Shown here: positions 43,172-49,519 of the stretch, in pieces
How positions within the stretch are numbered: the first letter of the stretch is position 1
Layout: each line of letters starts with the position of its first letter
Source of the DNA: Bacteroides intestinalis
GTDB lineage: Bacteria; Bacteroidota; Bacteroidia; Bacteroidales; Bacteroidaceae
Direction: 5' to 3'
Assembly: GCF_902364365.1 (NCBI RefSeq)
Contig: NZ_CABJDN010000003.1
Coordinates: 496,001-560,000 of the forward strand
DNA: 64,000 nucleotides
Program-made: the position numbers and the translations under genes
The notes under the pieces: model-generated
What the model was told of the DNA's origin: nothing
Seen by the model: the letters and a program-made list of their open reading frames with translations, nothing else
The model's database searches: none

Positions 43172-43732
43172 TTATACGCTATTCCATCTGGTAACTGTTG
43201 AAAAGCAAACAGGTGAATTGCGTTCATTTGTTAATATATATACTGCTTTATATTCCCCCTTTAAAGTGTCTCCATGAAAAACCATTCCGGAAATACCTCT
43301 AATGGATAAATTAAAAAGTAAGAATGGAATTGTTTTATCAGACATCTCACCGGCTACAATCAGATGTTTGTTAGGTTCGTAATCAAACGGATGAATATTA
43401 TACCGTTGACGATGCCAATTTGTAATTAACATGCCTCCCGTACCGGCTGCCGGCTCGTAAGTTACCCCGGCATCACTCCCCATCAATTTAGCGACTAATG
43501 AAGACAGGCATTTTGGCGTAAAATCTTGCTTCTGATTTTTGCGATCAGCATGTTCGTCTTCAAAATACTCATGAAACCAGTCATAACTAACATCACATTT
43601 AAAATAATCGAGAAAAGCCCGATATATTTTGATCCGGTCTTCTTCATCCCCCATGAGAATATTCATTAATCGACCAGGCGCCTGATAACTATCTGTTATG
43701 TCAAGCATCCTATTAATGTCATTCATTATCAT
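43172..43732 (-). CDS. N6-methylase-family protein lacking catalytic motif IV
   Basis: 186 aa. HsdM/N6-MTase-like: QDFTPKCLSSLVAKLMG, then SAM motif I YEPAAGTGGMLITNW, then GDTLKGEYKAVYILTNE. The usual (N/D)PP(Y/F) motif IV never appears and the protein ends ~35 residues after GDTL, so it can perhaps bind SAM but should not methylate. Short dead relatives occur in other phages (from memory). It overlaps the tyrosine recombinase start by 4 bp. Suggested roles, unproven: anti-restriction or regulatory subunit. Confidence 0.7.
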   Translation of the reverse strand: MIMNDINRMLDITDSYQAPGRLMNILMGDEEDRIKIYRAFLDYFKCDVSYDWFHEYFEDEHADRKNQKQDFTPKCLSSLVAKLMGSDAGVTYEPAAGTGGMLITNWHRQRYNIHPFDYEPNKHLIVAGEMSDKTIPFLLFNLSIRGISGMVFHGDTLKGEYKAVYILTNERNSPVCFSTVTRWNSV

Positions 43733-44745
43733 ACTATAAATTTTTCATGATTCAACTTCACTTCGTCATTCGTTGACTGAGCATAAATAGTCGTAGTCTG
43801 TATGCTTTCATGACCCAACATACGCTGTACTTGTTCAATGGGCATTCCTCGTTTCAAAGCCGTTGTTGCAGCAGTCCTTCTAAACTTATGCGGATGAACA
43901 TTCGATATACCGACACGTTCACCAAGATTCCTCAACATAATCTCAACAGCAGATTTAGACATTCTTACCGGAGTGCCGCCAATGCCACCCTTCATTCCTT
44001 CCCAAGTTGATATAAAAAGAGCTTCAAGATTATCGGTTCGGGTAGAAAGATATTCTTGAACAGCCAATTTGCAACGGGAAGAAAGATACACCGTACGGAA
44101 TTTACGTCCCTTTCCCAATACATCAACCTGACCGTTAGCCATATCAAGATCACCTCGATTTACATTTGTCATTTCAGACACACGGCAACCGGTCGAGAAT
44201 AGAAACTCAATTATAGCCTTATCTCGCTTGGTTCTGGCTGAATATCTTAGCTTCTCCATCTCATCCTCAGTAAGAGATTTACGAATCTTCTTCACCTGTC
44301 TAACACCCTTTATCCTAAGCATCGGATTTCGAACTACATAGTTCTCTTCTATGCACCAAGAGAAAAAGCTACTAAGAACCCGGCGTATGTTATTAAGAGT
44401 ATTATCACTTACTTTTTCCAACTTCTTACACGCAAGATAGATGCGCACATCATCTGTTGATATTTCCTTTATATGCTTCCCAACCTTTACTAAGAAGTTG
44501 GATATTATTGTGTTATAATAACTCAATGAGTTTTTAGACAGCCCTTCAACAGCTTTAGCTACAAAGAATTTGTGAAATATTTGTTTATCGCTATCATCAT
44601 AAAGAACCAATGAGGTATCCTTGTATCGCAACTCAAAATCCTTTAAAGCAACTGATACAAGGTCTATGACCGTGCTGATATTGGGAATATGGCTATTGTA
44701 TAATATTTCCCGAAGGTCGCTAACAAATTTCTCTTTTGTTTCCAT
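43729..44745 (-). CDS. XerC/D-like tyrosine recombinase
   Basis: 338 aa, complete. N-terminal core-binding SAM-like domain (~55-140), catalytic domain ~155-338 with all active residues: Arg188 (GCRVSE), Lys213, His286-x-x-Arg289 (HPHKFRR), His312 (GHES) and Tyr321 (TTTIYAQ). Resembles Xer and phase-variation invertases and is distinct from the attachment integrase at 60498. One-base overlap with the NUMOD1 gene stop region. May resolve phage multimers or invert DNA; no invertible segment was recognised. Confidence 0.85.
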   Translation of the reverse strand: METKEKFVSDLREILYNSHIPNISTVIDLVSVALKDFELRYKDTSLVLYDDSDKQIFHKFFVAKAVEGLSKNSLSYYNTIISNFLVKVGKHIKEISTDDVRIYLACKKLEKVSDNTLNNIRRVLSSFFSWCIEENYVVRNPMLRIKGVRQVKKIRKSLTEDEMEKLRYSARTKRDKAIIEFLFSTGCRVSEMTNVNRGDLDMANGQVDVLGKGRKFRTVYLSSRCKLAVQEYLSTRTDNLEALFISTWEGMKGGIGGTPVRMSKSAVEIMLRNLGERVGISNVHPHKFRRTAATTALKRGMPIEQVQRMLGHESIQTTTIYAQSTNDEVKLNHEKFIV

Positions 44746-46843: not shown

Positions 46844-48109
46844 TTACCCTAATTGTTCTACTTCTTCTATTGCTTTAAATATCTCAAAAATCACCTGCGG
46901 AACTATGGCGTTTCCATATCCCTTGACTGATTCCTGTCTCCACTTTGTGAAAGGAATGGTAAGGTCGCCCACATCAAAGGGAAGCCCATCATTTCCTCGA
47001 CAAACAGGGGATTGAGTTGGGAAGTTGCGCCATTTCTCTTCGGAGTACTCTCCTCCCCAGATGTTATAATGGCTTTCGCTACCGATTCCTCCAAGTTTCC
47101 CTTGTTCCTGAATGCTATATTCGGATTGTCTAAATCGCATCCGTTCACTTTGTTGGCTCGTGGAGTGGGGAGTAAGTTGTTCATTGCCATTGCAGTCAAC
47201 GCAGTCCCCATCTGGCTCTTCGGATTGTACTTCTTCATGTATTTGTCTGCTTCCCGGGCATTGGGAGTTGGAAGTAGTTGAACCATTCTTGCAAGCCCTA
47301 TACTTCCGTTCGTCCCGTTCTGGTTTATCTTCCTCTGAGTCCCGTTTTTGGTCGTTATAAAGGTGTCGTTCTCTCCAATTATCGCACCCGTCGTAGCATC
47401 GCTTGCCATTGGTGTTGGTAGCAACCCGAATTTCGCTCCGGACGAAAGATTGTTCAGTTTCGTCCCAGTTCTGTCTTTTGTTCTCTCGGCAGCTTTCATG
47501 GGATGTTCCACCACTTCCATGGCACGCGGTGTCGGTAGTAAGTCGTGCGACAAACCATACCCTGTCTCTTCTGTGGGGTGCTCCGACGGCACAAGCCGGA
47601 ATAAGCATCGGCTGGACGGAATATCCTTCTCGCTCAAGGTCTTTACAGATGGTTTCGACAACGTATTCCTGTTGTAGCAATATTCTTTTTCGGTTATCTT
47701 CTCCGAAAAGAGAGGTCTGGCTTCCCATTTCAGTCTCCTCGCCGGGCTGAACCATCGTGAGGATTCCAGCAACGTTTTCACCAATAACCCAAGTGGGTCG
47801 GATTTCCCGTATAGCACGGAACATGTGTGGCCAGAGGTAACGGTTATCATCCGCTCCCTTTCTTTGACCTGCGACGGAGAAAGGCTGGCAAGGAAACCCT
47901 CCTGTAAGGATGTCAATCCGTCCTCTCCATTGACTAAAGTCTGTTTTGGTAATGTCTTCATAATGTTCTGAATTAGGAAACCAATATTTCAATATCTCGT
48001 TGCAAAAATCGTTTATCTCACAGTGAAAGGCATTTTCCCAACCCATCCAGGAAGCTGCTACACTTGGGGCATCAAAACCGCTAAATAAACTGCCATGAAC
48101 TAATTTCAT
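46844..48109 (-). CDS. DNA cytosine-5 methyltransferase
   Basis: 421 aa. SAM motif I (GSLFSGFDAPS), catalytic GGFPCQPFS with Cys74, ENV at 111-113, RRDRVW at ~180, and the C-terminal GNAIVPQV motif near 401. Residues ~195-345 are the target-recognition region, unusually hydrophilic with repeated (A/T)(D/N)T-x-G-like units. Modifies phage DNA, probably against host restriction; the target sequence cannot be read from the protein. Nearly the whole recognition region and motif VIII are overlaid by a second 352-codon frame (46903-47961). Confidence 0.93.
   Translation of the reverse strand: MKLVHGSLFSGFDAPSVAASWMGWENAFHCEINDFCNEILKYWFPNSEHYEDITKTDFSQWRGRIDILTGGFPCQPFSVAGQRKGADDNRYLWPHMFRAIREIRPTWVIGENVAGILTMVQPGEETEMGSQTSLFGEDNRKRILLQQEYVVETICKDLEREGYSVQPMLIPACAVGAPHRRDRVWFVARLTTDTACHGSGGTSHESCRENKRQNWDETEQSFVRSEIRVATNTNGKRCYDGCDNWRERHLYNDQKRDSEEDKPERDERKYRACKNGSTTSNSQCPGSRQIHEEVQSEEPDGDCVDCNGNEQLTPHSTSQQSERMRFRQSEYSIQEQGKLGGIGSESHYNIWGGEYSEEKWRNFPTQSPVCRGNDGLPFDVGDLTIPFTKWRQESVKGYGNAIVPQVIFEIFKAIEEVEQLG
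46903..47961 (-). CDS. Overprinted ORF nested in the C5-methyltransferase gene
   Basis: 352 codons, same strand, shifted frame, fully inside the methyltransferase gene (its residues ~50-402). Four LLPTP-x-A repeats (LLPTPRAMEV, LLPTPMASDA, LLPTPNAREA, LLPTPRANKV), a SEHPTEETGYGL segment and a C-terminal LNPLFVEEMMGFP motif. I recall similar phage proteins with (L/W)PTP-x-A-x-D repeats and an LNP-x-FVEWLMGFP end. Where the other frame encodes (T/N)T-D/N-T units, this frame encodes LLPTP. Whether it is translated is unknown; there is no obvious SD. If real, a DNA-mimic or recognition-related protein is conceivable. Confidence 0.55.
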   Translation of the reverse strand: MKTLPKQTLVNGEDGLTSLQEGFLASLSPSQVKERERMITVTSGHTCSVLYGKSDPLGLLVKTLLESSRWFSPARRLKWEARPLFSEKITEKEYCYNRNTLSKPSVKTLSEKDIPSSRCLFRLVPSEHPTEETGYGLSHDLLPTPRAMEVVEHPMKAAERTKDRTGTKLNNLSSGAKFGLLPTPMASDATTGAIIGENDTFITTKNGTQRKINQNGTNGSIGLARMVQLLPTPNAREADKYMKKYNPKSQMGTALTAMAMNNLLPTPRANKVNGCDLDNPNIAFRNKGNLEESVAKAIITSGEESTPKRNGATSQLNPLFVEEMMGFPLMWATLPFLSQSGDRNQSRDMETP

Positions 48110-48682: not shown

Positions 48683-49519
48683 CTACTCAAAAATACTTTG
48701 AATGGATCTCGGTTTATAATTTATCCAAATCACTTCTTGTACTTCGTTGGATCGAATATTGTTCTTCTTTGATGGAAACTTTATCATAGTCCAGTCTCCG
48801 TACAGTTCTTGCATAAGAGGGCAATCATAACTACTTATCATTGCTTTTCCTTCAATAGAGTGTAATCGTTTGGCCAGTTCACAATGTTGATCGTTTGAAA
48901 ACTCAAATTTGTAATCGTTTGATGATGCCCGACATTCAAGCGGATAAGGCGGATCAACATAGAAGAATGCTTCTGGGAAATCTATTTTATCAATACAGGC
49001 AGAATAATCCAAATTAAGAATTTGAAAATTAGATCTGATTACTTCCGCTACTTCATGTAGCTTCTCTATTGCATTGTTCCAACGAGATACTGTTTCACCC
49101 CCTTGAGCATTAACATGTTTCTTTGCCATGTGCCAGCCTTTATTTTTCCGTTGTGCTCCTAATCCAAAGAAAGACTGACGGACTCGAACGTAAAATCTTC
49201 GGGCCTGCTCTATTTTATCTGCAGATGGTTCCCATGAATTATTATATTCTAATTCAGAACATGGGGTTAAAAGCAATAATCGAATCAATTCCGGTTCGTG
49301 ATCTCGTAACACTGCAAAGAAATTTGTGATATCCGCATTTATCTCGTTGGCTGTCTTAATCACTTTACCGTTGTAATTGAGAGATACAACCATACTTCCG
49401 GCGAAGAGATCCACTAAGTGAGTAAATCTATCAGGAAAATACTTGTATAAGTATTCAAGCCAAGTAAACTTGCCACCGAAGTAGTTAAAGGCTATTAGTT
49501 TATCTTTATTTCCACTCAT
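48683..49519 (-). CDS. D12-class adenine-N6 DNA methyltransferase (Dam-type)
   Basis: 278 aa, usual Dam length. N-terminal FNYFGGKF in place of YxGGK, SAM motif I VDLFAGSM (36-43), catalytic DPPY at 189-192 (FYVDPPYP), and a helical recognition insert between. Second DNA methyltransferase of the phage; with the C5 enzyme it would protect phage DNA from host restriction. No cognate nuclease gene lies nearby, so it is an orphan. Confidence 0.9.
   Translation of the reverse strand: MSGNKDKLIAFNYFGGKFTWLEYLYKYFPDRFTHLVDLFAGSMVVSLNYNGKVIKTANEINADITNFFAVLRDHEPELIRLLLLTPCSELEYNNSWEPSADKIEQARRFYVRVRQSFFGLGAQRKNKGWHMAKKHVNAQGGETVSRWNNAIEKLHEVAEVIRSNFQILNLDYSACIDKIDFPEAFFYVDPPYPLECRASSNDYKFEFSNDQHCELAKRLHSIEGKAMISSYDCPLMQELYGDWTMIKFPSKKNNIRSNEVQEVIWINYKPRSIQSIFE

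What the first reader, a model, noticed from the sequence alone, without database searches (positions are those of the whole stretch)
46903..47961. 352-codon ORF fully nested in another frame of the phage C5-methyltransferase gene
A same-strand frame of 352 codons without a stop lies inside the 421-codon methyltransferase gene and overlays its motif VIII and recognition region. Its protein is not random: LLPTP-x-A occurs four times, each where the other frame encodes (T/N)-x-(T/S)-type repeat units, and it ends in LNPLFVEEMMGFP. I recall separate phage proteins with PTP-x-A-x-D repeats and an LNP-x-FVEWLMGFP end. This suggests true overprinting, or a shared origin in which one repeat DNA encodes both proteins.
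Basis: partly seen in the sequence, partly recalled or inferred. Interest (0 to 1): 0.85.

Follow-up and report, generated by a model that had tools for sequence, protein, structure and literature searches.

The report
Methyltransferase split across two overlapping frames
A second protein appears to be encoded out of frame inside this phage DNA-methyltransferase gene, and it seems to carry the target-recognition region and one conserved enzyme motif that the main protein lacks, so one stretch of DNA probably makes both halves of the enzyme; the same arrangement was found in relatives from several bacterial phyla.

Summary
In detail: 46903-47961(-) is a 352-codon +1-frame ORF inside the 421-codon C5-methyltransferase gene. 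Comparative evidence says it is a real gene. In 201 of 201 loci with a nested-protein hit, that hit lies +1 over a C5-MTase frame. Of 117 distinct MTases picked by the MTase frame, 100 have no +1 stop from motif IV to X; codon shuffles predict 2. Forty-eight canonical C5-MTases show no such effect. Between motifs VIII and IX substitutions follow the nested frame: homologous nested modules are 77% identical against 43% in the MTase frame. The nested C-terminus (LNPLFVEEMMGFP) matches C5-MTase motif IX, modestly but in all three clades; the MTase frame there does not. Best reading: a split C5-MTase, alpha (I-VIII, X) plus overlapping beta (recognition modules, motif IX), laid out like M.EcoHK31I. 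Beta's variable part is a row of exchangeable (L/M)LPTP cassettes (16 families, 44 orders in 107 proteins; window E-C-B-F), as expected of recognition modules, though their sequence matches none. Translation and activity are untested. No independent homologue was found.

The parts
46844..48109 (-). alpha frame: C5-cytosine MTase, 421 aa
   Evidence: PF00145 E 6.4e-37; PHROG 363 DNA methyltransferase
46903..47961 (-). beta frame: nested gene, 352 codons, +1 relative to alpha
   Evidence: PHROG 1008 E 2.3e-26; family-level selection
47959..47961 (-). probable beta start codon ATG
   Evidence: ATG at this place in 23 of 28 clade A loci, GTG or TTG in 2 more; the alpha codon that creates it is TAT in 26 of 30 genes, TAC in none, other residues in 4, against 153 TAT to 149 TAC elsewhere in the same genes; alpha synonymous variability dips in this bin (0.33 against 0.63-0.67 in the five bins before it) but is intermediate (0.44-0.56, one bin 0.34) just after
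47876..47902 (-). alpha motif IV GGFPCQPFS, inside the overlap
47546..47578 (-). alpha motif VIII PHRRDRVWFVA, inside the overlap
47425..47541 (-). beta module 1 (type E), LLPTPRAMEVV...
47278..47424 (-). beta module 2 (type C), LLPTPMASDATTG...
47176..47277 (-). beta module 3 (type B), LLPTPNAREADK...
47035..47175 (-). beta module 4 (type F), LLPTPRANKVNG...
46969..47022 (-). beta motif IX-like segment SQLNPLFVEEMMGFPLMW
   Evidence: clade profile matches canonical motif IX; 0 of 60 column-permuted controls reach the score in each clade
46892..46924 (-). alpha motif X KGYGNAIVPQV
   Evidence: clade A alpha profile aligns to the canonical motif X columns, 0 of 30 controls

Best explanation
The locus encodes a two-polypeptide DNA cytosine-C5 methyltransferase from overlapping genes. 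Alpha, the annotated MTase, carries motifs I-VIII (SAM binding, catalytic PCQ) and motif X, joined by a weakly constrained linker. Beta starts at its own ATG 49 codons into alpha, is read in +1, and carries an N-terminal part overprinted on alpha's motifs IV-VIII, then a row of exchangeable (L/M)LPTP cassettes, then motif IX. Beta would pair with alpha and supply target recognition and motif IX in trans; the exchangeable cassettes would set which sites the phage methylates to escape host restriction. Shown by comparison: both frames are under purifying selection; a motif IX-like segment sits in beta and motif X in alpha; cassettes recur in different orders. Inferred: translation of beta, the alpha-beta complex, DNA recognition by the cassettes.
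For: No +1 stop from motif IV to X in 100 of 117 MTase-selected loci against 2.0 expected; 0 of 48 canonical controls open. Disjoint-pair rates (A 10, B 29, C 54 pairs): NS/SN (changes silent only in beta over changes silent only in alpha) is 0.09-0.15 before the overlap, 0.44-0.57 over motifs IV-VIII, 1.23-1.43 between VIII and IX, and 4.98 (B) and 3.19 (C) at motif IX. Alpha's synonymous rate falls from 0.78-1.34 to 0.32-0.46 on entering the overlap; beta dNN/dNS over IV-VIII is 0.44, 0.37, 0.65 against 0.70, 0.70, 0.97 before it. Modules: substitution at alpha codon positions 1/2/3 is 0.488/0.171/0.153; beta identity exceeds alpha in 119 of 120 pairs, 1 tie. Motif IX profile: 0 of 60 permuted controls in each of A, B, C; alpha at that place is reached by 13, 18 and 21 of 30 controls, alpha motif X by 0, 1 and 4 of 30. 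Recurrence of cassettes in 44 orders. Published layout of M.EcoHK31I: large subunit I-VIII and X, small subunit motif IX (PMC3404938, passage).
Against: Motif IX homology is weak in absolute terms: an HMM of canonical motif IX gives beta a median of -1.3 bits, 16 of 179 at 0 bits or more (6 of those 16 not at MGxP) and no hit for most of clade C; decoys reach 0 bits in 4 (shuffled) and 2 (reversed) of 179, and alpha in 16 of 283. The profile windows were anchored on MGxP (186 of 201 loci). The cassettes do not match the recognition region of canonical enzymes. AlphaFold models of beta alone are poor (a relative 59.6, the window 52.3 mean pLDDT); Foldseek on the relative's model found nothing at E <= 0.001; no PDB relative by sequence, no Pfam match for the window's beta. 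In clade C no conserved start codon sits where constraint begins and motif X matched weakly. NS/SN between VIII and IX has intervals that include 1 in A and B; the dNN/dNS intervals overlap in A; and at motif IX NS/SN is 0.38 in A with the pair test's borders, although finer bins there give 2.2-15.8. The paper places EcoHK31I's recognition domain in the large subunit.
Confidence: 0.75

Rival explanations
1. Beta is a real overlapping gene but not an enzyme half: a regulator, partner or anti-defence protein tied to the MTase, which finds its targets some other way.
For: Selection on beta does not by itself tell the function; no fold or family match; the cassettes resemble no known recognition domain.
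Against: It leaves alpha without a recognisable motif IX or a well-conserved recognition region, and makes the motif IX match of beta in three clades a coincidence.
Confidence: 0.18
2. The functional product is a transframe protein: ribosomes shift into +1 for the recognition region and back for motif X; no separate beta is made.
For: Recognition region and motif IX lie in +1, motif X in frame 0; clade C has no conserved start where constraint begins.
Against: It does not predict constraint on the +1 frame over motifs IV-VIII, which is seen, nor a conserved ATG near where constraint begins in clade A. In clade C the third base of the codon just before the onset is free, so no fixed slippery site shows there.
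Confidence: 0.05
3. Shadow ORF: the +1 frame is open and similar only because the MTase DNA is conserved.
For: Some conserved beta residues follow from conserved alpha residues (alpha DGVP gives beta MGFP; alpha DD gives beta Met); no independent homologue.
Against: Codon-shuffle and canonical-MTase controls; beta better conserved than alpha in the modules.
Confidence: 0.02

Closest known systems
M.EcoHK31I (two-polypeptide C5-MTase, YGGCCR)
   Same: Large polypeptide with I-VIII and X, small polypeptide with motif IX (PMC3404938 passage). That the small gene lies inside the large one in another frame is recalled from Lee, Kam and Shaw 1995, which is not held.
   Different: There the predicted recognition domain is in the large subunit; here that region of alpha is weakly constrained and beta is the better conserved frame. 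Here phage-borne, in several phyla, with cassette rows. I had no EcoHK31I sequence, so homology is untested.
M.AquI
   Same: C5-MTase in two polypeptides (PMC3404938 passage).
   Different: There the larger subunit has I-VIII and the smaller has the distal variable region with IX and X; here X stays in alpha.
Multispecific C5-MTases of Bacillus temperate phages
   Same: Several target-recognition domains in a row protect against many restriction systems (PMC12707154 passage).
   Different: There in a single polypeptide; here the row would be in a second polypeptide encoded in another frame.
ShiLan out-of-frame HNH endonuclease in a mycobacteriophage methylase (PMC11855218; outline, abstract and passages)
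   Same: A hidden protein in another frame of a phage methylase gene.
   Different: That is a homing insertion with a nuclease domain and a disjunct distribution; this overlaps the catalytic motifs themselves, has no nuclease match and was seen only with its MTase or remnants of it.
PHROG 1008 (labelled DNA methyltransferase)
   Same: Beta of the window and of 6 of 6 other loci tested match it.
   Different: It matches the nested frame, not the MTase proper; the label does not say so.

Membership tests
C5-cytosine DNA methyltransferase (PF00145), alpha | PF00145 above the curated cut-off, PCQ motif IV, GNA motif X | tested here: met
   128.1 bits against cut-off 22; motifs by eye and pattern
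C5-cytosine DNA methyltransferase (PF00145), alpha | Motif IX in the same polypeptide | tested here: not met
   Alpha at that place does not match canonical motif IX: 13, 18 and 21 of 30 permuted controls reach its score in A, B, C
M.EcoHK31I-type split C5-MTase | Large polypeptide with motif X, small one with motif IX | tested here: met
   Profiles; short segments, modest scores, motif X weak in clade C
M.EcoHK31I-type split C5-MTase | Small gene inside the large gene in another frame | tested here: met
   for this family; that EcoHK31I has this layout is recalled
M.EcoHK31I-type split C5-MTase | Recognition domain in the large polypeptide | tested here: not met
   Between VIII and IX beta is the better conserved frame
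M.EcoHK31I-type split C5-MTase | Both polypeptides needed for methylation | not testable with these tools
   Needs biochemistry
M.EcoHK31I-type split C5-MTase | Sequence homology to EcoHK31I alpha and beta | not tested
   I had no sequence of it; the paper is not held
M.EcoHK31I-type split C5-MTase | Cognate restriction enzyme next door | tested here: inconclusive
   10 neighbouring ORFs scanned with Pfam: no restriction enzyme; one weak homing-endonuclease-like match below cut-off, 3 ORFs without any match
Multispecific phage C5-MTase | Tandem exchangeable recognition modules between VIII and IX | tested here: inconclusive
   Modules in different orders shown in beta; that they recognise DNA is inferred; no profile match to the canonical recognition region
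ShiLan-type hidden homing endonuclease | HNH domain in the alternate frame | tested here: not met
   No Pfam match for the window's beta; among 82 relatives only 6 weak single-member matches, none HNH

The most novel reading that the evidence does not exclude
A large class of phage and prophage C5-methyltransferases in several phyla is split between two overlapping frames, and the hidden frame is a specificity subunit in trans: each (L/M)LPTP cassette recognises one DNA target, and recombination in the hidden frame assembles multispecific anti-restriction enzymes while the visible MTase frame tolerates almost any linker.
Probability: 0.55. Interest if true: 0.92.

Novelty: new variant of a known kind. 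Interest (0 to 1): 0.83.

Why it matters
In 10 of the 12 annotated phage regions opened here only one of the two frames is annotated, so half of the likely enzyme stays hidden. If right, this explains MTases that seem to lack a conserved recognition domain and motif IX, gives a long same-strand gene overlap kept by selection across phyla, and makes phage methylation specificity directly testable by relating cassettes to methylated sites.

Tried and rejected
Independent copies of beta: none found in what I opened. Homology of the LPTP cassettes to the canonical recognition region, prompted by the 'TL' motif described in PMC2413257 (passages): no better than permuted controls (9, 6 and 13 of 40 reach the score). 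A sliding-clamp motif read by eye (QLTLF in some clade B proteins; consensus recalled): dropped, since that place shows no special constraint. Shine-Dalgarno signal: SD-like sequence upstream of some clade B and C ATG codons and of a later in-frame ATG in clade A, none at the clade A start; not decisive. Solved-structure and fold searches: nothing. Global hhalign settings gave nonsense and were redone locally (whole-protein scores weak, E 0.03-0.08, with the C-terminus in the motif IX register). One search was set one base off and so queried the alpha frame; not used.

Literature: 10 searches. In their listings and in the passages opened of 10 papers I saw no account of this nested gene; only openly licensed PMC papers are held, no preprints. 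PMC6070908 (passages) lists two DNA-cytosine methyltransferase entries, gp62 and gp63, without discussion in the passages seen; two Paenibacillus phage records annotate beta as 'internal gene'.

Limits: the codon-shuffle and pair tests ignore part of the relatedness of loci. One search used 117 distinct of 161 MTase-selected loci (131 with both motifs), 300 shuffles each; of the 17 with +1 stops, 15 have one (in some probably beta's own terminator just before motif X), one has 2 and one has 10. One search parsed 55 of 66 loci, 48 without and 7 with a beta match; 5 of the 7 gave identical figures, 2 of the 48 (L498, L508) seem one ORF, and 2 of the 11 unparsed (L496, L505) lie in genes that proved nested. 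The canonical alignment for motif IX holds 23 of 41 sequences, kept for a recognisable motif IX. One search aligned modules in beta space, which favours beta somewhat. In one search two of the 8 loci (L004, L202) are one contig.

Full report
OBSERVATION. The window holds a C5-methyltransferase gene on the minus strand (46844-48109, 421 aa, PF00145 E 6.4e-37) and, fully inside it, a 352-codon ORF in the +1 frame (46903-47961). The nested protein matches PHROG 1008 and, at the cut-offs used, no Pfam, NCBIfam or PADLOC family. A protein search gave 3291 relatives at E <= 0.001, of which the best 120 were listed.

IS IT ALWAYS NESTED? Loci were collected from phage records, viral contigs and bacterial genomes. 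They fall into three groups: A (Bacteroidota type, with the window), B (Lactobacillus and Paenibacillus phages and many viral contigs), C (the type of Salmonella SEN5, Burkholderia BcepC6B and Pseudomonas Haboob). Of 202 sequences, 201 gave a nested-protein hit (L031 missed the cut-off). In all 201 the nested hit overlaps an MTase tblastn hit (E <= 1e-8) in the +1 phase and the third frame has stops; the MTase frame is free of stops in 198 (30 of 31 A, 84 of 86 B, 84 of 84 C) and the nested hit in 197 (27, 86, 84). These loci were found by the nested frame, so this says nothing on how often it is broken. In 80 loci from bacterial genomes (best 80 of 345; record titles include Firmicutes, Alpha- and Deltaproteobacteria, Acidobacteria, Chlorobiota, Coriobacteriia and Bacteroidota) both frames are intact in 75 and one has a stop in 5. 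Two loci without an open overlapping MTase frame (L509, L513) show what reads as its decayed C-terminus in the expected phase.

IS THE FRAME SELECTED? Loci chosen by the MTase frame alone, as relatives of three MTases of this family: 161, of which 131 have both motifs IV and X and 117 are distinct. From motif IV to motif X, 100 of 117 have no +1 stop (A 4 of 9, B 30 of 41, C 66 of 67), where shuffling synonymous codons within each gene predicts 2.0; the +2 frame is open in none. Canonical C5-MTases from genomes: 48 without a nested match have 12.83 stops against 12.99 expected and none is open; 7 with a match have 0.43 against 2.80 and 5 are open (11 of 66 loci were not parsed).

WHICH FRAME IS CONSERVED WHERE? 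Changes were classed by their effect in each frame, in disjoint pairs (A 10, B 29, C 54). Before the overlap, changes silent in the MTase dominate (NS/SN 0.09-0.15), as in an ordinary gene. Over motifs IV-VIII both frames are constrained: the MTase synonymous rate falls from 0.98/0.78/1.34 to 0.37/0.32/0.46 (A/B/C), NS/SN rises to 0.44-0.57, and nested dNN/dNS is 0.44/0.37/0.65 against 0.70/0.70/0.97 before the overlap (intervals overlap in A). Between VIII and IX NS/SN is 1.43, 1.23 and 1.32 (intervals include 1 in A and B); at motif IX it is 0.38, 4.98 and 3.19. After motif X it is 0.15-0.27. For the +2 control frame dNN/dNS is 0.97-1.91 throughout, no sign of coding. For 120 pairs of homologous nested modules in group A, substitution at MTase codon positions 1, 2, 3 is 0.488, 0.171, 0.153, the pattern of a gene read in the nested frame; nested identity is 0.77 and MTase identity 0.43, nested higher in 119 with 1 tie. 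For the window against 8 group A loci (two of them one contig) codon position 1 changes most between VIII and IX (0.557 against 0.399 at position 3).

WHERE DOES IT START AND STOP? In group A MTase synonymous variability dips at an ATG 23 codons before motif IV, stays intermediate, and is lowest further in. The ATG is present in 23 of 28 loci; the MTase codon that makes it is TAT in 26 of 30 genes, TAC in none and another residue in 4, against 153 TAT to 149 TAC elsewhere in the same genes. In group B the drop lies roughly at codons -24 to -9, with start codons at varying places. In group C it comes abruptly at the PCQ cysteine without a conserved start codon, so the group C start is open. Constraint ends close to motif X.

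WHAT IS IT? The nested C-terminus, LNPxWVEWLMGYPxGWT in group B, sits where motif IX of a C5-MTase should be, just before motif X. Profiles of this segment (windows anchored on MGxP, present in 186 of 201 loci) align to motif IX of 23 canonical enzymes in the same register in A, B and C (scores 18.0, 18.6, 21.1; P 0.005, 0.004, 0.001; none of 60 column-permuted controls in any). The MTase frame at that place does not (13, 18 and 21 of 30 controls reach its score), whereas its motif X aligns to motif X (0, 1 and 4 of 30; weak in C). An HMM of canonical motif IX scores nested proteins only weakly (median -1.3 bits, 16 of 179 at 0 or more, against 4 shuffled and 2 reversed; alpha 16 of 283), so the match rests on position, register and three clades rather than on one strong score. 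Motif X is thus in one polypeptide and IX in the other, the layout published for M.EcoHK31I, whose large subunit has I-VIII and X (PMC3404938 passage).

THE CASSETTES. Between the N-terminal part and motif IX the group A nested protein is a row of units that each begin (L/M)LPTP. In 107 of 121 proteins parsed (the window and the 120 best hits, many close to it) there are 447 units, 16 families and 44 different orders; the window reads E-C-B-F. They behave as exchangeable modules, like the recognition arrays of Bacillus temperate phages (PMC12707154 passage). Their sequence does not match the canonical recognition region, so this role is inferred from place, exchange and constraint.

MODEL. Alpha gives SAM binding, catalysis and motif X; beta gives motif IX and, by inference, target recognition. 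A likely history, not tested, is that the region from the recognition domain to motif IX fell out of frame with the rest and was kept as a second polypeptide, extended upstream over alpha's catalytic motifs. AlphaFold models of beta alone are poor (relative 59.6, window 52.3 mean pLDDT), as might be expected of a protein that folds on a partner, but equally of a disordered one.

CONFIDENCE (judgement). That beta is a real gene: about 0.97. That it is the second half of the methyltransferase: about 0.75. That the cassettes are recognition modules: about 0.55.

Noticed in passing
L041 (MT835926.1) 336-2408: The MTase is interrupted right after GGFPC of motif IV by an intein-like insertion (Hint_2 and a below-cut-off Intein_splicing match); its frame has a stop between 809 and 846, while the nested frame runs on from inside the insertion.
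   Followed up: partly
L446-L450 (genome G003, the genome of L440): Five loci in one genome whose MTase/nested pairs gave identical figures, as if on a repeated mobile element or prophage.
   Followed up: no
L035-L038 (group C): By eye, these MTases have motif II/III-like sequence (YYNEID...) before the motif I-like FFAGI segment, as if permuted; motif names recalled.
   Followed up: no
P0005, P0037, P0046, P0067, P0088: Database proteins that pass from one frame into the other (MTase N-terminus into nested frame, or nested frame into MTase C-terminus): indels, sequencing errors or real frame switches.
   Followed up: no
window 43172-44745 and 48683-49519: Neighbouring genes: a short N6_Mtase match, a phage integrase and a D12-class adenine methyltransferase.
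   Followed up: no
phage records NC_041909.1 (L003) and KP296792.1 (L039): The nested gene is annotated there as an 'internal gene' of the MTase; the 10 other annotated regions opened call only one frame.
   Followed up: partly
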